Assembly: GCF_900149695.1 (NCBI RefSeq)
Contig: NZ_LT703003.1
Coordinates: forward strand, 868,001 to 932,000
Source of the DNA: Anderseniella sp. Alg231-50
Lineage (GTDB): Bacteria > Pseudomonadota > Alphaproteobacteria > Rhizobiales > Aestuariivirgaceae
DNA: 64,000 nucleotides
Direction: 5' to 3'
Part shown: in pieces, positions 1 through 9,544 of the stretch
How the letters are laid out: the number at the start of each line of letters is the position of its first letter
How positions within the stretch are numbered: the stretch's first letter is position 1
Notes under the pieces: generated by a model
The model's database searches: none
Seen by the model: only the letters and a program-made list of their open reading frames with translations
Told to the model about the DNA's origin: nothing
Made by a program: the position numbers and the translations under genes

Positions 1-1432
1 TTGAGTCCAATTCGGTGTCCTGAATCTTTTCGGAGATTTGAACCGAAATGCAAGTCCTCTTGCCACTATCAATGGAATTGAATTCTTGGACCGCATGTGG
101 CAACGAAGCGCTGCCAACAAAAAAGTCCATAATCAACGCGTCAGAGTCTTCTTTTGTTGAAAGCTCCAAAATTCTCTTCATCAGCCGAATCGGCTTTGGT
201 GTGTCAAAGACTCCAGCATATTCTGGTAGTAATGAGTTTACTTCTTTTTTGGCCTCCTGATTATGGCCGCACTCTTCGTAGGTCCACCAAGTAGTGGGAA
301 CTCGTCCGTCTTTCACGTCCGTCAGATATTGTTTTATTGCTGGAACGTTTGATCCATCTTCCCCAAACCATATCCTGCCCTGTTCCATCAAGTTTTTCAT
401 ATTTTCTTTGGAGGTGAACCAACAACGTCCATTTGGTGGACGAACAACGCGGCCTGATGGTGTGATAATTTCGTAGTCATAGGAAGCTGAGTAAGATTTT
501 ACAGATGCGTCACCAGCTTTCCAAACACCACGCGGATCATCATCTCTATTTGTATATCTTGCGTTCTGTTCTTCGGTTCGAGGCAGTAGATCGATGTTCC
601 AACCTGTCGTGTCAGATTTTTTATCCCGCCTATTTTTCGCAAAAACCAATATATGATCATGCATATCGCTGAAATAAGTAGCGTCATTTTGGGGAGAGTA
701 TTTCTTTTGCCAAACAATGTTTGCCACAAAATTTCCACTCCCAAACAACTCCTCACACATCTTTTGAAGGGCTGAAACCTCGCCATCATCAATAGAGATG
801 AAAATAACCCCATCGTCTCGTAGTAAATTTCGCGCCAACTTCAGTCTTGGGTACATCATCGACAGCCAGTCTGAATGGTACCGTCCATTACTTTCAGGAT
901 TGGCAACCAGCCGTCCGCCTTCCTCATCCCGCTGACCGCTTTCTTCAAGATACTGGTCCTTGTCAGCCGTGAAATTGTCCCTGTAGATGAAGTCCTTGCC
1001 GGTGTTATAGGGCGGATCGATGTAGATCAACTTGACCTTGCCGAGATAGGTTTCTTGCAAGAGCTTTAAGGCATCTAGATTGTCGCCTTCGATGAAAAGG
1101 TTCTTCGTAGTGTCGAAGTCGACGCTCTCCTGGCGGCAGGGGCGCAGGCTCTTGTTGATCGGCGCATTGGCGGCCAGCATGGCCTTCTTCTTGCCCGGCC
1201 AGTTGAGGTGATAGCGCTCTTGCGGTCCTTCGACGATATTGTCCGACAATTCCTGTTTCAGCGCATCGAAATCGATGACGTGTTTCACATTGCCATCGTC
1301 GTCGCGGCCTTCCGTCACCACATTAGGAAACAGGTCCGCAATGCGCTGGATGTTTTGATCGGTGAAGTTCGGCGTGGTCAAGTCCAGCTTTTCCAGCCCG
1401 CTTTCGTCGCCATATTCGATCTCATCGCTCAC
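1..1432 (-). CDS. Type III-like site-specific DNA methyltransferase (Mod), partial at window edge
   Basis: Adenine-N6 DNA methyltransferase of the beta class, the modification subunit type of type III restriction systems. The reading frame is open from the GTG at 1432 to base 1, about 477 codons, so the C-terminus lies outside the window. The catalytic motif DPPYNTG is near residues 139-145, and the AdoMet-binding motif comes later (DFFVGSAS, about residues 436-443). This DPPY-before-AdoMet order defines the beta class. The third position of the usual FxGxG is Ala instead of Gly. The GTG start overlaps the stop of the upstream DUF4391 gene by 4 bases, so translation is probably coupled. Base composition is clearly more AT-rich than the genes from 5.6 kb onward. 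From family knowledge, a Res-type helicase-nuclease would be expected next, beyond base 1; this is inference. Confidence 0.9.
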   Translation of the reverse strand, partial: MSDEIEYGDESGLEKLDLTTPNFTDQNIQRIADLFPNVVTEGRDDDGNVKHVIDFDALKQELSDNIVEGPQERYHLNWPGKKKAMLAANAPINKSLRPCRQESVDFDTTKNLFIEGDNLDALKLLQETYLGKVKLIYIDPPYNTGKDFIYRDNFTADKDQYLEESGQRDEEGGRLVANPESNGRYHSDWLSMMYPRLKLARNLLRDDGVIFISIDDGEVSALQKMCEELFGSGNFVANIVWQKKYSPQNDATYFSDMHDHILVFAKNRRDKKSDTTGWNIDLLPRTEEQNARYTNRDDDPRGVWKAGDASVKSYSASYDYEIITPSGRVVRPPNGRCWFTSKENMKNLMEQGRIWFGEDGSNVPAIKQYLTDVKDGRVPTTWWTYEECGHNQEAKKEVNSLLPEYAGVFDTPKPIRLMKRILELSTKEDSDALIMDFFVGSASLPHAVQEFNSIDSGKRTCISVQISEKIQDTELDS

Positions 1433-2130
1433 AGGCTTCGCTCCAATCTTCTTGTTGTTTCATCCGGCGGCGTTTCCAGCACTACCAATTCTGCTTCGGC
1501 CTGCCGCAGTCTTTTATTGAGTTCCACCCGCCGGTTGAATTGTTTCTCCCGCGCCATCGCAGCCTTCAGCTTGTCACAAGTTCGTTCCTTCACCGCAATC
1601 GCAGTGACACGGTCCGCGAACGCATCCATCGTTTCGCCGGGAAACGGCACATGCGGCATTAGCACTTGCAGCATCTCGCGGTAGAGCGTACCGAGATTGA
1701 GCGCCATTGGCAGCGGTGCCCGCTGCGTATCAACCGGTAGCCAGTCGCCGCGAAAATAATCGCCCACCATCCATTTCATTCTGTCAGCCTCGCTGGGCCG
1801 CTTGTATGCCGCTGAAACACAGAGTTGCTCTGCACGATGCAATTCGAAGATGATGGGGAAAGCAATCGCCCGATCGACAAGCCTCAAAACACCTTCCGAT
1901 ATTTCATCGCCCTTCAAAACCACTTCAAATATCTGAATTTCCGGTACAGCTTCGGTGGAGGACAAATTGAGCGCCTTGGGGAATAGTTTGTGTTTCCAGA
2001 TAATTTGCGCCACCTGATCGGTCAACTGCTCCCTGACAGTTCCTGTGGGTCGGGAATTAGCGGTTATCCTAGACTTCGGTACTACCTTGTTGAAAAGCGT
2101 GTTTGTCGGATATTGAAACAATCCGCTCAC
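1429..2130 (-). CDS. DUF4391 domain protein of the methylase-helicase module
   Basis: A 233-residue protein that resembles the DUF4391 family in length and in its central region (EIQIFEVVLKG followed by FPIIFEL and a later FRGDWLP segment). The C-terminal 50 residues are rich in Lys, Arg and Glu and look like a coiled coil (KLKAAMAREKQF through LRQAEAELVVLE). The family has no assigned enzymatic role that I know of. It is repeatedly found between SNF2-type helicases and type III-like methyltransferases, as here. Both junctions are 4-base overlaps: the start overlaps the helicase stop at 2127-2130, and the stop overlaps the methyltransferase GTG. This implies one transcript and fixed stoichiometry. 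A DNA-targeting or adaptor role in defence is inference. Confidence 0.75.
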   Translation of the reverse strand: MSGLFQYPTNTLFNKVVPKSRITANSRPTGTVREQLTDQVAQIIWKHKLFPKALNLSSTEAVPEIQIFEVVLKGDEISEGVLRLVDRAIAFPIIFELHRAEQLCVSAAYKRPSEADRMKWMVGDYFRGDWLPVDTQRAPLPMALNLGTLYREMLQVLMPHVPFPGETMDAFADRVTAIAVKERTCDKLKAAMAREKQFNRRVELNKRLRQAEAELVVLETPPDETTRRLERSL

Positions 2131-5100
2131 TGAAGCGTCCTCACGACAATAAAGGCAACGAGTTCGAAGTCATCTAGACCTTCGATGGTATCCGTTAGCG
2201 CAGTAGTGGCTCCACCGGAAAACAAACTTTCAATGTCTTTTTCCTCTTTCACATCGATCATCGAGCGTATCGCCTGGTCGAGAAGCGCAGAATATTTCTG
2301 CATTCGCCGTCCGTCCTGCGTTTCCTTATTAAACGGCTCGTAAAACGCTTTGACCGGCTCCGAAACTCCACGGCAAGCTGACCGCGCAAGATCAAGCAGG
2401 TGCTTGACTTGGGTGTGGTCTGAAATGATCTCACCGGCTTCGCTGATGTAGACAAGATAGAACGGGTGAAGCCGGTTCTGCCGATTGATCTCGCTGCCTG
2501 CCTTGATGTTTCGAAGCGTGAAGATCACGCCGGGCTCCAGACCCAAGGATGGCATTGCGGGAACGACGGCGTGCATCCCATTTGGGACGCCGTTCATATC
2601 GCCTCGTGCTTTGACATAGTTCACGAGGTCCATGCGGAAGTCATTCAAGCCAAGGTCTGTGATCGAAATGCCTTGCCGCACGTCTTCCAATTCTATGACC
2701 TCATCCTGCATCCGGCGCAGCTGTTCGCGCCTGTATGAAATATCGTTCGCCTTGGCACTCAACACATTGTCATCGCCAGTTGCCGACACATCCGCAATAA
2801 CCATGCGGTTTTCGACCCGCTCCTTGAGATTGATGTATTCATCCAGAGAAATGTCAGGCCAGTAGTTCACCAACTGGATTTGATCATTAGAAGAACCAAT
2901 ACGATCCACGCGGCCAAAGCGCTGAATGATGCGAACGGGATTCCAGTGTATGTCATAGTTGATCACCATATCGCAGTCTTGAAGGTTCTGACCTTCCGAA
3001 ATGCAATCGGTGCCGATCAGAATATCGATTTCTTCCGGTTCCTCCGGCAACAGCAGGCTTTTCTTTTTGGATTGCGGTGAAAACAGCGTCAAAATCGATT
3101 GGAAATCATAGTGATTTTTCAAAGTCGATTTTGGTGCGCTGGAACCAGAGACGCAAGCCGTGTGGCGCTGATGTTTTACCGAGATATGTTCTGCGACATG
3201 TTCGTTGAGGTAGTTTGCCGTATCGGCGAAGGCCGTAAAAACAAGTACCTTGTGATTACCGGAATTGATCGGTTCATCGACTTTCTCCGACAAGCGTTGT
3301 AGCAAATGTTGCAACTTGAAGTCATCTTCTGGCTTTATGTGGCCAAGACTTTCGAGAAGCGCCGAAACGATTGCCTGATCTGCTGACAGTTCCGCCTTCC
3401 AAGTTGGCAGGTCCATATCTGCGAAATCAATCTGAACCTTCCCGCCGGTTGTTGATGGATCAATCTCGGTGAGATCGTCCTCGTCCGGCTCCATGCCTTC
3501 AATGATATCGGTTAGGTCACCAATGTTTGCTGCCTCACCAGAACTCTCGAAAGTTTCGATGTGGCCAAGCGTGCTTGAATAGAGATCATTCAGACGACCC
3601 AGCGTGATGCGGAACGCTTCCACAGAACTTTCAAGCCGCTTGAGCAAGTTCGTTGTCATCAAAGCCTGCAAGGCTTTCTCGCGATCTGCCTGGCGTAGTG
3701 CAGAACCGCCGCTACTCACCTTTGTGTCGTAGAGTTCTTCATACTTTTGCAGGCGGCTCGGCAGGACGTATTTAATCGGCGCGTAGACCGCGAGGTGGAG
3801 TTGAGTGAGGTCCTTGTAGATTTCATTGAACTGTGGTGTGTCCGGTCGCTCTGACAGCTTGCAGTGATGAGAGATCGGCTTAAGGCGCTTAGGAAATTGG
3901 CCAATCTCCGCGGTATCGTAATAGGTGGTGATGTGCTTTCGCGAGCGTGCAATGGTGACGCTATCGAGCAGTTCGAAGAGGTCGAAATCAAGCGCCTCGA
4001 GTATCGCTTCTGCGGTGCGATCTTCTGGGGGCAGCTTTGACCACTCGTTAAACGCAGCCTGTGAGCGCCGGAAAATCTCGTCGATACCTTTGCTGGTTTT
4101 CAACTTCTGGTTCAGACGTTCTGGTTCGTCCTCATAAGCCAGCGCCAGCTGGTTCTTTAAATCGTTGAACCGATTATTCACTGGTGTAGCGGAAAGCATG
4201 AGAACCTTCGTTTTGACACCCGCGCGCACGACCTGATTGAGCAACTTCTCGTACCGGGTCTCGCGGTCTTTTACGGCATCATTATTTCGGAAATTGTGAG
4301 ACTCATCGATAACAACAAGATCGTAATTACCCCAGTTTACCTCGTTCAATCGAATACCAAAGGACTCGCCGGTTTCGCGTTGCAGATCAGTGTGACACAA
4401 GACATCGTAGTTGAGCCGGTCTGCCGCCAGGATATTAGTCTTGAGGTTCTTGTTGTAGGTGAGCCAGTTGTCAGCCAACTTTTTTGGACAAAGCACCAGG
4501 ACGGACTTGTTTCGCAATTCGTAGTATTTGACGACAGCCAGTGCGGTGAAGGTTTTGCCGAGGCCGACGCTGTCAGCGAGTATGCAGCCGTTAAAGGTTT
4601 CAAGTTTATTGATCAGCCCAACAGCTGCATCACGTTGGAAGTTGTAGAGAGTGTTCCAGACAACCGAGTCCTGATAGCCAGTCATCTCGTTGGGCAGCAC
4701 ATCTTCATTAATGTCCTCAAGGAACTCATTGAATACATTGAAGAGCATAAGAAAGTAAATTCGTTCCGGCGAATTCTCGCGATAGATCGACGCAATATGT
4801 TCGCAAAGACGCTCTGTGACGTCCTCGACCCTATCGGCATCGTTCCAAACTTGCTCGAACAGTTTGACGTAGACACCAGTTGTCGCGGCATCATCGTTTC
4901 GATTTACGAAATTGGAAACTGCATTGCCTTGGGTGTACCCAAGATCTGCAACTGAGAAGCCTTGAATTCCGGAATAGACTGTTGCCCCATCAATTGTCTC
5001 TGTAAAGGCGAATTGCTGCATGGTCGAACGTGTGCGGTTGCTCTTGAACTTCGCCTTGCGCCTAATCCAGTCCGCACATTCACGGGCAATCGCGCGCTGC

Positions 5101-5399
5101 GTTAGTTGATTTTTGAGATGAACCTCGTACTCGGTTCCGTACAAGCCGCGCTCTCGGTTCAACTTAGGAATTTCGAATTCACGATGCGCCCGCTTGTTAC
5201 TATCAGTTTGCTGGGAAGGTGTGAACGTCGAGGAGGTGAAAATGAACTGTAATTCATCTACTTTTTCGAGTTCATCCTTAAGAACTTCATAGGCGAACAT
5301 CGAGAAATTTGCGGCTGCGACTCTTAGCTTAGCACCTGGAATCAATTTGGTTTTGAGATCGTCACCAAAGATTTGATTGATGTTATCAATTACAAGCAT
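2127..5399 (-). CDS. SNF2/RapA-type helicase with degenerate PLD-like N-terminal domain
   Basis: A 1090-residue superfamily 2 translocase, first gene of the module. Residues about 1-150 look like a phospholipase-D-like domain (AAANFSMFAYEVL near 28-40), but no intact HxK...D catalytic motif is visible: the place where HxKF would be expected reads MQQF near 127-130. The helicase core is complete: Walker A ADSVGLGKT at 275-283, DESH at 365-368, LSATP at 402-406, motif V TDCISEGQNLQ near 797-807 and motif VI QRFGRVDRIGS at 826-836. The VGLGKT and FGRVDRIG forms are typical of RapA/SNF2 proteins rather than Res subunits. An acidic insert (EPDEDDLTEID) separates the two RecA-like lobes. It is likely an ATP-driven DNA translocase acting with DUF4391 and Mod in genome defence. 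The start is the only well-placed ATG, after an AT-rich leader. Confidence 0.9.
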   Translation of the reverse strand: MLVIDNINQIFGDDLKTKLIPGAKLRVAAANFSMFAYEVLKDELEKVDELQFIFTSSTFTPSQQTDSNKRAHREFEIPKLNRERGLYGTEYEVHLKNQLTQRAIARECADWIRRKAKFKSNRTRSTMQQFAFTETIDGATVYSGIQGFSVADLGYTQGNAVSNFVNRNDDAATTGVYVKLFEQVWNDADRVEDVTERLCEHIASIYRENSPERIYFLMLFNVFNEFLEDINEDVLPNEMTGYQDSVVWNTLYNFQRDAAVGLINKLETFNGCILADSVGLGKTFTALAVVKYYELRNKSVLVLCPKKLADNWLTYNKNLKTNILAADRLNYDVLCHTDLQRETGESFGIRLNEVNWGNYDLVVIDESHNFRNNDAVKDRETRYEKLLNQVVRAGVKTKVLMLSATPVNNRFNDLKNQLALAYEDEPERLNQKLKTSKGIDEIFRRSQAAFNEWSKLPPEDRTAEAILEALDFDLFELLDSVTIARSRKHITTYYDTAEIGQFPKRLKPISHHCKLSERPDTPQFNEIYKDLTQLHLAVYAPIKYVLPSRLQKYEELYDTKVSSGGSALRQADREKALQALMTTNLLKRLESSVEAFRITLGRLNDLYSSTLGHIETFESSGEAANIGDLTDIIEGMEPDEDDLTEIDPSTTGGKVQIDFADMDLPTWKAELSADQAIVSALLESLGHIKPEDDFKLQHLLQRLSEKVDEPINSGNHKVLVFTAFADTANYLNEHVAEHISVKHQRHTACVSGSSAPKSTLKNHYDFQSILTLFSPQSKKKSLLLPEEPEEIDILIGTDCISEGQNLQDCDMVINYDIHWNPVRIIQRFGRVDRIGSSNDQIQLVNYWPDISLDEYINLKERVENRMVIADVSATGDDNVLSAKANDISYRREQLRRMQDEVIELEDVRQGISITDLGLNDFRMDLVNYVKARGDMNGVPNGMHAVVPAMPSLGLEPGVIFTLRNIKAGSEINRQNRLHPFYLVYISEAGEIISDHTQVKHLLDLARSACRGVSEPVKAFYEPFNKETQDGRRMQKYSALLDQAIRSMIDVKEEKDIESLFSGGATTALTDTIEGLDDFELVAFIVVRTLQ

Positions 5400-5660: not shown

Positions 5661-6926
5661 ATGCAGGACGACGTTTTAGATACCGCCACTCACACAGGCG
5701 CCGCCTCAACGACACCTTTGAAGCAGGCGGTGTTTCGCAGCTCCAAGGCCTCGCGGCAAGGGGTGCTGGAGCGCCTGTTTGCGTTTGTGTTTGAGGGGCT
5801 GGTCTATCCGCAGATCTGGGAAGACCCGGTTGTCGACATGGACGCCATGGCGATCGAGCCGGGCCATCATGTGGTGGCGATCACGTCGGGCGGCTGCAAT
5901 GTGCTGTCCTACCTTACCGCCGACCCGGCGCGGATTACCGCGGTGGACCTGAACCAGGCGCACCTGTCTTTGTTGAAACTCAAACAGGCGGCGATCAAGC
6001 ACCTGCTGGCGCACGAGGATTTCGCGCGGTTTTTCGCCGGCAGCGGCAGCCCGCTGAACGTCGAGCTGTACGACCAGTTGCTGGCGCACCGGCTGGATGA
6101 CGAGGCACGGCACTACTGGTCGGGCGAGCGCACGCTTGCGGGCCCGCGCATAGAACTGTTTGCCGGCAACTTTTATCGCCACGGCCTGCTCGGGCGCTTC
6201 ATCTCCGCCGCGCACCTGGCGGCGCGTCTTCATGGCGTCAATCCGGCCGATATCATGGCCTCAAAAACGCTGGACGAACAGCGCTGGTTCTTTGCCGAAA
6301 AACTGTCACCGCTGTTCGACAAGCGGCTGATCCGCTGGCTGACCTCGTCGCCGATGTCGCTGTACGGCCTCGGCATACCACCGGCCCAGTACACCGAGCT
6401 GGCCGAAGGCCGCCACATGGCCGACGTGCTGCGCGAACGGCTCGGCAAGCTGGCTTGCGACTTTCCCCTGTCGGAAAACTATTTCGCCCGCCAGGCGTTC
6501 GGCCGCAGCTATGCAAGCCCGCCGGCCGGCGGCCAGGATGGCATGGCGCTGCCGCCCTACCTGGATGCGGAAAACTGGGGCGCCTTGCGCGACCGCATTG
6601 ACCGGGTCAGCGCCCACAACCGGTCGGTGACCGACGTGCTGGCCGAAGCACAGCCTCAAAGCGTCGATCGGATCGTGCTGCTGGACGCGCAGGACTGGAT
6701 GTCAAACGACCAGCTCAACGCCCTGTGGGCGGCGGCCACGCGCGCTGCCGCACCGGGCGCGCGCATCATCTTCCGCACCGCCGCACGCACCTCGCCGCTG
6801 GAGGGGCGCGTAGCGCCGTCCGTGCTGGACCGCTGGGCCTACGGCAAGGCCGCCTCCAGGCGCCACACCGCCCGCGACCGCTCGGCGATCTATGGCGGCT
6901 TTCACCTCTACGAGTTGCGCCCATGA
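5661..6926 (+). CDS. btaA: BtaA: AdoMet:diacylglycerol 3-amino-3-carboxypropyl transferase (DUF3419)
   Basis: First enzyme of betaine-lipid (DGTS) synthesis. It moves the 3-amino-3-carboxypropyl group of AdoMet onto diacylglycerol to give diacylglyceryl-homoserine at the inner membrane. At 421 residues it matches the bacterial BtaA length. The N-terminal part has GLVYPQIWEDP near 46-56, the AdoMet loop ITSGGCN near 74-80 and the acidic strand end AVDLNQAH near 94-101, all typical of DUF3419 proteins. The ATG at 5661 is preceded by a GGGGC stretch and lies 70 bases past the Pho-box-like site. The stop overlaps the btaB start by four bases (ATGA). Confidence 0.93.
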   Translation: MQDDVLDTATHTGAASTTPLKQAVFRSSKASRQGVLERLFAFVFEGLVYPQIWEDPVVDMDAMAIEPGHHVVAITSGGCNVLSYLTADPARITAVDLNQAHLSLLKLKQAAIKHLLAHEDFARFFAGSGSPLNVELYDQLLAHRLDDEARHYWSGERTLAGPRIELFAGNFYRHGLLGRFISAAHLAARLHGVNPADIMASKTLDEQRWFFAEKLSPLFDKRLIRWLTSSPMSLYGLGIPPAQYTELAEGRHMADVLRERLGKLACDFPLSENYFARQAFGRSYASPPAGGQDGMALPPYLDAENWGALRDRIDRVSAHNRSVTDVLAEAQPQSVDRIVLLDAQDWMSNDQLNALWAAATRAAAPGARIIFRTAARTSPLEGRVAPSVLDRWAYGKAASRRHTARDRSAIYGGFHLYELRP

Positions 6927-7672
6927 AGCAGCACAGCCAGACGCTTGTCGCCACCCGCCATGCCCGCACCATGGACGATGTCTACCGCTACCAGCGCTAC
7001 ATCTATGACCTGACCCGGAAATACTATCTGTTCGGCCGCGACACGCTGCTCGACACGCTGGACATTCCCGACGGCGCGCGGGTGCTGGAAATCGGCTGTG
7101 GCACGGGGCGCAACCTGGTGCTGGCGGCGCGCGCCAACCCGCAGGCACTGTTTTACGGGTTCGATATCTCATCCCAGATGCTGAAGACGGCAAGCGCCAA
7201 GGCGGCAAAAGCCGGGGTTGACGGGCGCATCTTCACCGTGGCGGGGGACGCGGAGAAGTTCGACGCCCGCCGGGCGTTCCAGGTCGGCGGTTTTCAGCGC
7301 GTGCTGTTCTCCTACAGCCTGTCCATGGTGCCGGACTGGCAGCGCGCCTTTTTGAATGCGCTCGACCAACTCAGCCCCGACGGCCGCCTGCACATTGTCG
7401 ATTTCGGCGAAATGGAACGCTGGCCCGGCTTTGCCCGCGCGCTGATGCTGAAATGGCTGGCCAAATTCCATGTGGAACCGCGCGCCGGCATGGCGAGCAT
7501 CGTCGAGACGCTGGCCAAACGGCGCGGACTGACCGCCAGCGCCCGCAAGCTGGCCGGCGGCTATGCAGTGCTGATCGTGGTGTCGAAAGACCCGGTCCCT
7601 TCAGTCCAAAAGCCCCCTGAGAAAGCGGACAACAGTGACGAGATCAATTTCATACATGCGATGATCCCGTGA
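6923..7672 (+). CDS. btaB: BtaB: AdoMet-dependent methyltransferase of betaine-lipid synthesis
   Basis: A class I methyltransferase expected to trimethylate the amino group of diacylglyceryl-homoserine, giving DGTS. From the ATG at 6923 it has 249 residues. The AdoMet motif I is VLEIGCGTG near residues 54-62, with the acidic end of strand 2 in YGFDISSQM. It is assigned as BtaB because it directly follows and overlaps btaA and has the N-terminal DDVYRYQRYIYDLTRKYYLF segment of that family. The frame stays open upstream inside btaA, but the ATGA overlap marks the natural start. Its stop overlaps the plcP GTG by four bases. The C-terminal tail after residue about 225 is polar and looks dispensable. 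Confidence 0.92.
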   Translation: MKQHSQTLVATRHARTMDDVYRYQRYIYDLTRKYYLFGRDTLLDTLDIPDGARVLEIGCGTGRNLVLAARANPQALFYGFDISSQMLKTASAKAAKAGVDGRIFTVAGDAEKFDARRAFQVGGFQRVLFSYSLSMVPDWQRAFLNALDQLSPDGRLHIVDFGEMERWPGFARALMLKWLAKFHVEPRAGMASIVETLAKRRGLTASARKLAGGYAVLIVVSKDPVPSVQKPPEKADNSDEINFIHAMIP

Positions 7673-8505
7673 ACGTCCACTCGCCAAAACCACGGTCCTC
7701 CCGGTACCGCGCCATCTGGATTTCGGATTTCCACCTCGGCACCAAGCGGGCCCAGGCGGAGCTACTCCTGGACTTCCTGCGGGTGACCGAGTCCGAAACC
7801 CTGTACCTGGTCGGCGACATCGTCGACAACTGGGCGCTGCAGAAAACCTGGCAGTGGGACCAGCTGCACAATGACGTCATTCAGAAGCTGTTGCGCAAGG
7901 CGCGTAAGGGCACGCGCGTGATCTACATTCCCGGCAACCACGACGAGAATTTCCGCGATTTCGCCGGCTCCCAGTTCGGCCGCATGGCGGTGCGGCTGAC
8001 CGACATGCATATCTCGGCCACCGGCAAGCGCTACCTGGTCATGCACGGCGACGAGTTCGACGGCGTGGTGAAATATGCCAAGTGGCTGGCCTATCTGGGC
8101 GACAATGCCTACGAGGTGGCGATCTCCACCAATATCGTGCTCAACAAGGTCCGGCGCCTTTTGGGCAGGCCGTACTGGTCGTTGTCGGCCTACCTGAAAA
8201 ACCGGGTGAAAAAGGCGGTCGAGTTCCTGTCCAATTTCGAGCACGCCATGGTGCGCGAAGCCCGGCGGCGCGAGGCGCACGGGGTCATCTGCGGCCATGT
8301 GCACACGCCGGAAATGCGCACCATTGACGGTATCGAATATCTCAATGACGGCGACTGGGTGGAAAGCTGTTCAGCGCTGGTGGAACATTTTGACGGCACC
8401 TTCGAGCTCTTGGACTGGCGCGCCGCGAACCCCATATGTGTGGGCGAACCGGAGAAGAGACATGCGCATACTTCTGGTAACGGACGCCTGGCACCCGCAG
8501 GTTAA
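7669..8505 (+). CDS. plcP: PlcP-like metallophosphatase (phospholipid C-type hydrolase)
   Basis: Calcineurin-like metallophosphoesterase of 278 residues. All metal-binding motifs are visible: DFH at 20-22, GD at 49-50, GNHDE at 89-93, HGDEFD near 126-131 and GHVH at 209-212. Sequence relatives include LpxH-type UDP-diacylglucosamine pyrophosphatases and PlcP, which strips headgroups from phosphatidylcholine and phosphatidylethanolamine under phosphate starvation in rhizobia and marine alphaproteobacteria. The position between btaAB and a GT4 glycosyltransferase, downstream of a Pho-box-like site, favours PlcP: it would release diacylglycerol for BtaA and Agt. LpxH activity is the alternative. 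The GTG start overlaps the btaB stop by four bases. Confidence 0.82.
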   Translation: MNVHSPKPRSSRYRAIWISDFHLGTKRAQAELLLDFLRVTESETLYLVGDIVDNWALQKTWQWDQLHNDVIQKLLRKARKGTRVIYIPGNHDENFRDFAGSQFGRMAVRLTDMHISATGKRYLVMHGDEFDGVVKYAKWLAYLGDNAYEVAISTNIVLNKVRRLLGRPYWSLSAYLKNRVKKAVEFLSNFEHAMVREARRREAHGVICGHVHTPEMRTIDGIEYLNDGDWVESCSALVEHFDGTFELLDWRAANPICVGEPEKRHAHTSGNGRLAPAG

Positions 8506-9544
8506 CGGCGTCGTCCGCACCCTTACCCGCACCATGCAGGGCCTGGAAGACAAGGGCCACGAGGTGATGTGCCTGACGCCGGACGGCGCCCGCACCATTC
8601 CAATGCCGACATACCCTGAAATCCGGCTGGCACTGGTCACGCCTGCCGAAGTCAGCCGCCGGATCTCCGGCTTTGCGCCCGACTGCGTGCACATCGCCAC
8701 CGAAGGCCCGCTCGGCTGGATGGCGCGGCGGCACTGCCTCAAACACAACATGGCGTTCACCACCAGCTTTCACTCGCGGTTTCCCGAAATGCTGGTCAAC
8801 CGGCTGCCTATACCGGGACTTGAGCGCCTGGCATATGCGTTGCTGCGCCGGTTTCATGCACCTGCCGCCGCGACACTGGTGCCGACGCCGACGGTCACCC
8901 GCAGGCTGGGGGATTTGGGGTTTTCAAACCTGAAAACCTGGACGCGCGGAGTGGATACCGACCTGTTCAAACCGCACCAAGGCGACGTGTTTGAAGGCCT
9001 TGCCCGCCCGGTCATGCTGTGCGCCGGACGGGTGGCGGTGGAAAAGAACATCGAGGCTTTTTTGCAGACAGACCTGCCTGGAACCAAGGTGGTGGTCGGC
9101 GACGGCCCGCAGCTTGCCGAGCTGAAACAGCGCTACCCGGATACGGTGTTCACCGGATACCGCACCGGCGATGATCTTGCCCGGACATTGTCTTCGGCTG
9201 ACGTGTTCGTGTTTCCCAGCAAGACCGACACGTTCGGGCTGGTCATGCTGGAAGCGCTGGCCTGTGGCGTACCGGTGGCCGCCTTCCCGGTCGAGGGTCC
9301 CATCGACGTGATCACCTCGCCACGCGCCGGGGTCCTCGATGATGACCTGGCCACCGCAATCAGCGCTGCACTGAAGCTTGACCGGCAGGACTGCATAGAC
9401 TTCGCCAAGACGTTTTCCTGGGACCGGGTCACCGAGCAGTTTGAGGCATCGCTGGTGCCGGCTGACCGTAATCCGCCCAACCATCGGCGTGCAGCATCCG
9501 GGCGCGCATTTGCAGGCAGACACACTTCCAACACCGGAATCTGA
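8462..9544 (+). CDS. agt: GT4 glycosyltransferase, probable Agt glycolipid synthase
   Basis: A 360-residue GT-B fold glycosyltransferase of family GT4. The N-terminal DAWHPQVNGVVRTL and the C-terminal donor site KTDTFGLVMLEALACG (the E-x7-E region) are typical of this family. It is the usual partner of PlcP, using UDP-sugars to glycosylate the diacylglycerol that PlcP releases, giving mono- or glucuronosyl-diacylglycerol as phospholipid substitutes. The start chosen is the ATG at 8462, preceded by GGAGAAGAG at a good distance; it overlaps the last 44 bases of plcP in another frame. The last 30 residues are basic and low in similarity to the core. The sugar donor cannot be read from the sequence. 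Confidence 0.82.
   Translation: MRILLVTDAWHPQVNGVVRTLTRTMQGLEDKGHEVMCLTPDGARTIPMPTYPEIRLALVTPAEVSRRISGFAPDCVHIATEGPLGWMARRHCLKHNMAFTTSFHSRFPEMLVNRLPIPGLERLAYALLRRFHAPAAATLVPTPTVTRRLGDLGFSNLKTWTRGVDTDLFKPHQGDVFEGLARPVMLCAGRVAVEKNIEAFLQTDLPGTKVVVGDGPQLAELKQRYPDTVFTGYRTGDDLARTLSSADVFVFPSKTDTFGLVMLEALACGVPVAAFPVEGPIDVITSPRAGVLDDDLATAISAALKLDRQDCIDFAKTFSWDRVTEQFEASLVPADRNPPNHRRAASGRAFAGRHTSNTGI

What the first reader, a model, noticed from the sequence alone, without database searches (positions are those of the whole stretch)
1..5399. SNF2-type helicase, DUF4391 and beta-class methyltransferase as one coupled defence-like module
Three genes are joined by 4-base overlaps and are more AT-rich than their surroundings, which suggests transfer as a unit. 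Type III systems are normally Mod plus Res; here a RapA/SNF2-type translocase and a DUF4391 protein precede Mod. DUF4391 has no known function that I can name. A composite restriction or BREX/DISARM-like strategy is plausible but is inference.
Basis: partly seen in the sequence, partly recalled or inferred. Interest (0 to 1): 0.65.

Follow-up and report, generated by a model that had tools for sequence, protein, structure and literature searches.

The report
Type III restriction with extra motor
The genes at the window's left edge are most of a type III restriction system, a bacterial defence against foreign DNA, which here carries two extra partner genes (a DNA-motor protein and a protein of unknown function) that recur beside it in many bacteria and seem to be inherited with its cutting enzyme.

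Summary
In detail: SNF2 helicase, DUF4391 and Mod overlap by 4 bases each in an AT-rich block. But the window cuts the operon. A full-length Res starts 2 bp after Mod, left of base 1, beside tRNA-Arg. So this is a complete type III R-M system plus a SNF2-DUF4391 pair, not a BREX/DISARM composite. The four-gene set recurs: of the 80 kept DUF4391 relatives, SNF2 is found in 79, Mod in 78, Res in 67, all misses near contig ends. In a 398-genome draw 20 of 21 SNF2 genes of this family adjoin DUF4391. SNF2, DUF4391 and Res trees agree; Mod's does not, because its catalytic/specificity core is exchanged while its ends follow the other genes. E. coli plasmids show the same. The SNF2 N-terminal HKD-like domain lacks the catalytic His and Lys in 107 of 107 rows, so Res is the one recognised nuclease. 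DUF4391 is predicted confidently as an alpha/beta domain plus helical hairpin with a conserved tip; no fold match was found. Most likely the pair is an ATP-driven accessory of the restriction complex; that role is inferred. New variant of a known kind.

The parts
2127..5399 (-). SNF2-family helicase with degenerate N-terminal HKD-like domain, 1090 aa; first gene of the operon
   Evidence: SNF2-rel_dom, Helicase_C; PADLOC C3a139 'HKD+Snf2' 429.6 bits over 3-1086. GLGKT, DESH, SATP, QRFGR present.
5010..5024 (-). TMQQF stretch (SNF2 residues 126-130) at the place of the HKD motif: catalytic His and Lys absent
   Evidence: His column has no H and Lys column no K in 107 of 107 rows; L131 keeps H and K.
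1429..2130 (-). DUF4391 protein, 233 aa: alpha/beta domain (1-160) and helical hairpin (168-219)
   Evidence: PF14335, 7.1e-50; AlphaFold2 pLDDT 93.7; no confident fold match.
1534..1551 (-). Turn of the DUF4391 hairpin (residues 194-199) with E195, Q197, F198, N199
   Evidence: Invariant in the 81-row alignment A2; E.Q.N in 70 of 72 loci of the wider set; position in the model.
1..1432 (-). Mod, beta-type adenine methyltransferase, N-terminal 477 of 639 aa; runs off the window's left edge to L003:9513, followed after 2 bp by Res (L003:6454-9510, 1018 aa, outside the window) and by tRNA-Arg (L003:6330-6406)
   Evidence: EcoP15I Mod 4zcf_A 3.1e-56, EcoP15I Res 4zcf_C 1.6e-76.
1007..1018 (-). 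Mod DPPY motif (residues 139-142)
   Evidence: DPPY in 72 of 72 loci.
110..127 (-). Mod motif I, DFFVGS; lies after DPPY in the sequence, the order of the beta class (class order recalled)
   Evidence: motif in the window's Mod; my general pattern for motif I matched 50 of 72 loci, the other 22 not inspected.

Best explanation
A complete type III restriction-modification system with a dedicated two-gene accessory module: SNF2 (dead HKD domain) - DUF4391 - Mod - Res. Mod methylates adenine in the target site and marks self; Res together with Mod cuts unmarked DNA. SNF2 and DUF4391 act as an ATP-driven DNA motor and its coupler that work with Res and with the two conserved ends of Mod, not with target recognition. 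I think the motor clears bound proteins or moves the restriction complex along DNA so that two complexes meet and Res cuts. Shown: gene set, motifs, loss of the HKD residues, recurrence, congruent descent of SNF2, DUF4391 and Res, exchange of the Mod core. Inferred: a physical complex, the motor step, and defence activity itself.
For: Res full length with helicase and RE_endonuc domains. Four-gene set: SNF2 in 79, Mod in 78, Res in 67 of 80 loci, misses near contig ends; 10 of 10 opened plasmid loci (of 40 records); SNF2 beside DUF4391 in 20 of 21 genomes of an independent draw. Spearman r of distances in 67 loci: SNF2-Res 0.85, SNF2-DUF4391 0.73, DUF4391-Res 0.72, against Mod-Res 0.42. SNF2 and Res trees share 24 of 50 splits, Mod 2 with either. 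Mod residues 581-639 follow the other genes (r 0.55-0.70), residues 101-520 do not (-0.16 to 0.16). E. coli: SNF2 and Res 99.3-100% identical around different Mod cores. Helicase motifs kept in 72 of 72 while the HKD residues are gone in 107 of 107.
Against: No experiment. Mod-Res without the pair exists: 12 of 33 resolvable Mod matches in one draw (hand count), including L139 inside the window's own Res clade, and G077, where only a DUF4391 C-terminal stretch precedes Mod; so the pair is not needed by every type III enzyme. Congruent trees show joint descent, not contact, and Mod ends could follow neighbours because of where crossovers fall. The HKD identity of the window's own domain rests on alignment and a model name; Pfam finds PLDc_2 in 2 of 23 members, not in the window's.
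Confidence: 0.55

Rival explanations
1. Two outputs share one Mod. Mod-Res restricts, while SNF2-DUF4391 stops unmethylated DNA without cutting, as is thought for helicases of BREX or DISARM.
For: SNF2-type helicases next to adenine methyltransferases recur: DrmD-like SNF2 before Mod-Res (L144, L146), SNF2-HKD before a type IIG-like methyltransferase (L131), Type-2 BR systems (PMC12839542, sections 29 and 31). The HKD domain is dead, so this branch would not cut.
Against: SNF2 descends with Res more closely (r 0.85) than with Mod (0.37). No locus with enough sequence keeps SNF2-DUF4391-Mod and lacks Res in the 80-locus set.
Confidence: 0.2
2. SNF2-DUF4391 is a control or safety device for Res, for example preventing cutting of the host chromosome when a new Mod core is taken up.
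For: The pair stays fixed while the Mod core is exchanged; Mod-Res can exist without it.
Against: No toxicity data. Pair-free relatives are viable, and an ATP-driven translocase is a costly safety device.
Confidence: 0.15
3. The pair is an independent defence neighbour that only travels with type III genes in defence islands.
For: Other genes do insert between DUF4391 and Mod (gap >600 bp in 26 of 78) and between Mod and Res (35 of 67), several of them defence-like.
Against: Fixed order with SNF2-Res congruence across the exchanged Mod. No DUF4391 locus with enough sequence lacked SNF2. Only L114 lacked Mod and Res with sequence to spare, and there a transposase-like ORF lies downstream of DUF4391 (the ORF was judged by eye).
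Confidence: 0.1

Closest known systems
Type III R-M, EcoP15I-like (PDB 4zcf)
   Same: Mod and Res adjacent, co-directional, with DPPY, helicase and PD..ETK motifs; Res aligns with EcoP15I Res in helicase and endonuclease parts.
   Different: Two extra genes, SNF2 and DUF4391, upstream in the same operon; EcoP15I is described as Mod2Res1 (PMC4490356, abstract start in a listing).
PADLOC candidate C3a139 'HKD+Snf2'
   Same: SNF2 matches it over almost its full length (429.6 bits).
   Different: The model says nothing of DUF4391 or type III partners; the HKD residues are lost here.
Type-2 BR (BREX-related) systems, PMC12839542
   Same: N-terminal HKD domain on a Snf2 helicase, with an adenine methyltransferase (sections 29 and 31 read).
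   Different: Those have a DUF499 ATPase and an HKD domain described as a DNase; here there is no such ATPase in the island, HKD is dead, and the methyltransferase is a type III Mod with Res.
DISARM class with DrmD
   Same: SNF2-like helicase near an adenine methyltransferase (system content recalled).
   Different: SNF2 149.2 bits against the DrmD cut-off of 610; no DrmA/B/C gene in the four-gene island. A DrmD-like SNF2 with type III Mod-Res exists elsewhere (L144, L146).
modA phasevarion Mods of Neisseria and Haemophilus
   Same: Variable recognition domain in an otherwise conserved Mod (PMC3311624, abstract start in a listing).
   Different: Here the exchanged part reaches beyond the recognition domain into the catalytic core (residues 101-520), and SNF2-DUF4391 belongs to the fixed part.

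Membership tests
Type III restriction-modification | Adenine methyltransferase Mod of the type III group with DPPY | tested here: met
   PADLOC MTase_III 764.9 bits; EcoP15I Mod match; DPPY.
Type III restriction-modification | Adjacent Res with SF2 helicase and PD-(D/E)XK endonuclease | tested here: met
   PADLOC REase_III 1069.1 bits; RE_endonuc; GTGKT, DEPQ, PD..ETK in the window's Res.
Type III restriction-modification | Asymmetric site, ATP-dependent cutting that needs two inversely oriented sites | not testable with these tools
   Needs methylome and biochemistry.
PLD/HKD nuclease (SNF2 N-domain) | Catalytic H-x-K-x4-D | tested here: not met
   0 H and 0 K in those columns in 107 of 107 rows, the window's included.
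DISARM | DrmD by curated cut-off; DrmA/DrmB in the locus | tested here: not met
   149.2 against 610 bits; the other three island genes are DUF4391, Mod and Res.
BREX / BR systems | PglZ and BrxC, or DUF499 ATPase, in the locus | tested here: not met
   None of the four island genes matches such a protein; SNF2 only partly resembles BrxH (97 bits). Genes beyond the island were not scanned for these.
DUF4391 (PF14335) | Score over the curated cut-off | tested here: met
   170.5 against 29.9 bits.
A known fold for DUF4391 | Confident structural match | tested here: inconclusive
   Foldseek: none at E <= 0.001; VIA best Z 7.7 for the hairpin (rmsd 2.6, 61 aligned) and 5.1 for residues 1-160 (rmsd 3.6, 102 aligned).

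The most novel reading that the evidence does not exclude
A motor-assisted class of type III restriction. SNF2-DUF4391 gives the enzyme long-range directional translocation, which EcoP15I-type enzymes lack, and so relaxes the rule that two inversely oriented sites must meet. The DUF4391 hairpin tip is the coupler, and Mod's core is an interchangeable specificity cartridge held by its two ends in a fixed SNF2-DUF4391-Res chassis.
Probability: 0.25. Interest if true: 0.75.

Novelty: new variant of a known kind. Interest (0 to 1): 0.55.

Why it matters
Type III enzymes are described as Mod plus Res. In one 398-genome draw, 21 of 33 resolvable close matches to this PADLOC Mod family had DUF4391 on the same contig (hand count), and in the loci examined the two extra genes descend with Res. 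If they take part in restriction, the subunit list and the two-site mechanism are incomplete for a common form of the type. It also gives DUF4391, found in one paper of the held library, a testable role, and the E. coli plasmid copies make the test feasible in laboratory strains.

Tried and rejected
tRNA-targeted integration: the island lies beside tRNA-Arg, but no exact repeat of 13 bp or more of the tRNA region was found in the window, and none of the four genes is an integrase; not shown, though the site differs between relatives. Promoter/terminator scan: numbers as in shuffles. DUF4391 as a nuclease: VIA rows for residues 1-160 include Uma2-like and Hjc folds (Z 2.7-3.8), with unrelated rows at the same or higher Z; not pursued. 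The match in G275 (below the family cut-off) lies near a coiled-coil-rich ORF with no SNF2, Mod or Res match in its 3.1-kb locus; taken as unrelated. The other sub-cut-off match, G077, is not: it is a DUF4391 C-terminal stretch directly before a Mod gene, probably a remnant. PDB search with the DUF4391 profile: 0 matches; with the SNF2 N-domain profile: chance-level matches only. Phage carriage: the two 'phage' records with DUF4391 are 13-kb faecal scaffolds and the one opened is marked UNVERIFIED; not claimed. Families not listed by Foldseek or VIA are not excluded.
Full report
What is there. The window is G000:C1:868001-932000. On its minus strand SNF2 (2127-5399), DUF4391 (1429-2130) and Mod (1432 leftwards) overlap by 4 bases each. 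I took the sequence to the left. Mod is 639 aa in full, and 2 bp after it starts a 1018-aa Res with helicase and RE_endonuc domains; it matches PADLOC REase_III at 1069.1 bits and, among solved structures, EcoP15I Res only. Beyond it lies tRNA-Arg(ccg). So the module is a four-gene operon, SNF2-DUF4391-Mod-Res, of 50% GC between neighbours of 61-64%.

The site is variable. In a same-genus genome (G655) the TRAP gene left of the tRNA (91% identical) and the DUF3419 gene right of the island (86%) enclose the same tRNA-Arg but another block: Vsr endonuclease, C5 methyltransferase, FRG, Schlafen AlbA_2, a 2128-aa ORF and others. One pair of genomes suggests, but does not prove, a defence hotspot. 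I found no attachment-site repeat.

Recurrence. A scan of the species-genome collection with a DUF4391 alignment found 240 relatives, of which the tool kept the best 80. Searching these with the four proteins found SNF2 in 79, Mod in 78 and Res in 67 of 80. The 1, 2 and 13 misses have at most 67, 418 and 3,315 bases of contig left on the relevant side. Of 40 plasmid records I opened 10; all have the four genes, one (L022) broken by insertion sequences. A draw of 398 genomes of the phylum is free of that selection: DUF4391 in 23, SNF2 family C3a139 at E <= 1e-60 in 21, the two adjacent in 20 by their coordinates. The three genomes with DUF4391 only (G302, G305, G523) have contig ends within 400 bases. 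The one SNF2 without DUF4391 (L131) stands two genes before a type IIG-like methyltransferase.

Type III genes without the pair exist. In the same draw 38 Mod matches reach E <= 1e-120. By hand count have DUF4391 on the contig, 5 cannot be judged (contig end) and 12 lack it. Of the 12, L144 and L146 have a DrmD-like SNF2 directly before Mod. In a class draw of 289 genomes (9 with a match, 7 over the cut-off), G077 has only a DUF4391 C-terminal stretch before Mod. In a tree of 46 chosen Res proteins one clade holds 20 pair-bearing rows, the window's among them, and one without the pair (L139); a second clade mixes both kinds, two of its pair-free rows (L141, L142) being contig-end cases.

One unit of descent with an exchanged part. 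For 72 loci with four full-length genes I compared pairwise distances. In the 67 of the window's subtype Spearman r is SNF2-Res 0.85, SNF2-DUF4391 0.73, DUF4391-Res 0.72, Mod-Res 0.42, DUF4391-Mod 0.39, SNF2-Mod 0.37; 0 of 500 shuffles reach any of these, but such shuffles ignore relatedness. FastTree trees of 53 loci: SNF2 and Res share 24 of 50 splits (200 tip shuffles: mean 0.18, maximum 2), DUF4391 shares 23 with SNF2 and 19 with Res, Mod 2 with each. Along Mod, residues 101-520 show r between -0.16 and 0.16 with the other genes, residues 1-100 0.39-0.50, residues 521-580 0.33-0.42 and residues 581-639 0.55-0.70. The core is exchanged and the ends stay.

The same is visible at short range in E. 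coli. 10 of 5,426 complete genomes match the cassette of L015, 9 over at least 80% of it. I compared L015 with 4 of the 10. SNF2 is 99.3-100% identical, Res 99.5-99.9%, DUF4391 91.7-100% and Mod 66.2-73.6%. In 40-column windows Mod identity is 77-100% in columns 1-120, 0-50% in columns 241-520 and 67-100% after column 520. Variable recognition domains in type III mod genes are known (modA, PMC3311624, abstract start seen in a listing); the fixed partner set around them is what I add.

Active sites. SNF2 GLGKT, DESH, SATP and QRFGR, Mod DPPY, Res GTGKT and DEPQ/H are in 72 of 72 loci; Res PD..ETK in 71 of 72, the miss being L134. My Mod motif I pattern matched 50 of 72; the rest were not inspected. 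The HKD-like N-terminal domain of SNF2 has no His and no Lys in the catalytic columns in 107 of 107 rows, while L131 keeps both. That this domain is PLD-like rests on the C3a139 model's name and on alignment to L131; 2 of 23 members hit PLDc_2 and the window's own domain hits no family.

DUF4391. AlphaFold2 gives a confident model (pLDDT 93.7): an alpha/beta domain and a helical hairpin whose turn carries E195, Q197, F198 and N199, invariant in 81 rows; E.Q.N holds in 70 of 72 loci of the wider set. Foldseek found no match at E <= 0.001 in PDB or the viral library for the whole model, nor in PDB for residues 1-160 alone. The hairpin resembles many coiled coils (best Z 7.7, rmsd 2.6, 61 aligned), which says little; residues 1-160 reach Z 5.1 at best.

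Company. In the 80-locus set a gap over 600 bp lies between DUF4391 and Mod in 26 of 78 and between Mod and Res in 35 of 67, but over 700 bp between SNF2 and DUF4391 in 3 of 79. I collected 100 ORFs from such gaps in the held loci (some are second Mods or Mod pieces). The largest cluster (19) has a Schlafen AlbA_2 representative; representatives of other clusters are DUF2130, UvrD-like, YhcG nuclease, OLD-like ATPase, Fic, ORF6N, PLD-like, SIR2-like, Bro-N and HerA-like proteins. Only representatives were scanned. I did not test enrichment against a background.

Mechanism. From what is known of type III enzymes (recalled; abstract starts of PMC4490356 and PMC11142916 seen in a listing), ATP drives a short motor step, the complex then slides, and cutting needs long-range interaction between sites. 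A second SNF2 ATPase that descends with Res and is indifferent to Mod's specificity core fits an accessory motor of the restriction complex, with DUF4391 as coupler; the dead HKD domain fits because cutting is left to Res. That is inference. A non-cutting branch, a safety device and mere neighbourhood are the rivals.

Literature. 'DUF4391' occurs in one paper of the held library (one passage read: a table row associating it with nonpermissive hosts of the epibiont TM7x). 'PF14335', 'COG4391' and 'C3a139' occur in none. Searches joining type III restriction with SNF2, HKD, helicase, operon and defence terms gave no description of this gene set in what I looked at: passages of PMC12458937, PMC10853773, PMC2292703 and PMC9122601, and passages plus sections 29 and 31 of PMC12839542. 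Listed papers that I did not open may say more; subscription papers and REBASE were not searchable; and PADLOC already lists the SNF2 family, so the parts are known singly.

Noticed in passing
L144:4389-12718 and L146:5147-13001: A DrmD-like SNF2 helicase (705.3 and 657.5 bits to a DrmD model) directly upstream of type III Mod and Res, without DUF4391: a second pairing of an SNF2 protein with type III genes.
   Followed up: partly
L131:9954-17237: SNF2 of the same family that keeps the HKD His and Lys, followed by a 353-aa ORF and a type IIG-like methyltransferase (Eco57I, TaqI_C), with no DUF4391, Mod or Res found in the 20-kb stretch.
   Followed up: partly
L052:10660-14480 and L142:4299-8136: Two full-length Mod genes in tandem before one Res, as if two specificities shared one restriction subunit.
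   Followed up: no
L166 (G655:C10:424500-444400): The same tRNA-Arg site in a same-genus genome holds Vsr, C5 methyltransferase, FRG, Schlafen AlbA_2 and a 2128-aa ORF in place of the four-gene island.
   Followed up: partly
L171 (MT836122, faecal scaffold filed as phage, UNVERIFIED): SNF2, an Abi_C protein, DUF4391, then Mod- and Res-like ORFs on 13 kb; the Abi_C gene sits between SNF2 and DUF4391, a rare place for an extra gene.
   Followed up: partly
L011 (G077): A C-terminal DUF4391 stretch (profile 181-232) directly upstream of a Mod gene, with no SNF2 match in the 3.2-kb locus: probably a remnant of a lost pair.
   Followed up: partly
window 5661-9544: Right of the island: DUF3419 protein (PF11899), then by eye a methyltransferase-like, a phosphoesterase-like and a glycosyltransferase-like ORF, which looks like a membrane-lipid remodelling cluster.
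   Followed up: no
PMC7784981: A table row associates DUF4391 with Actinomyces hosts that are nonpermissive for the epibiont TM7x; few genomes, but in keeping with a defence role.
   Followed up: no
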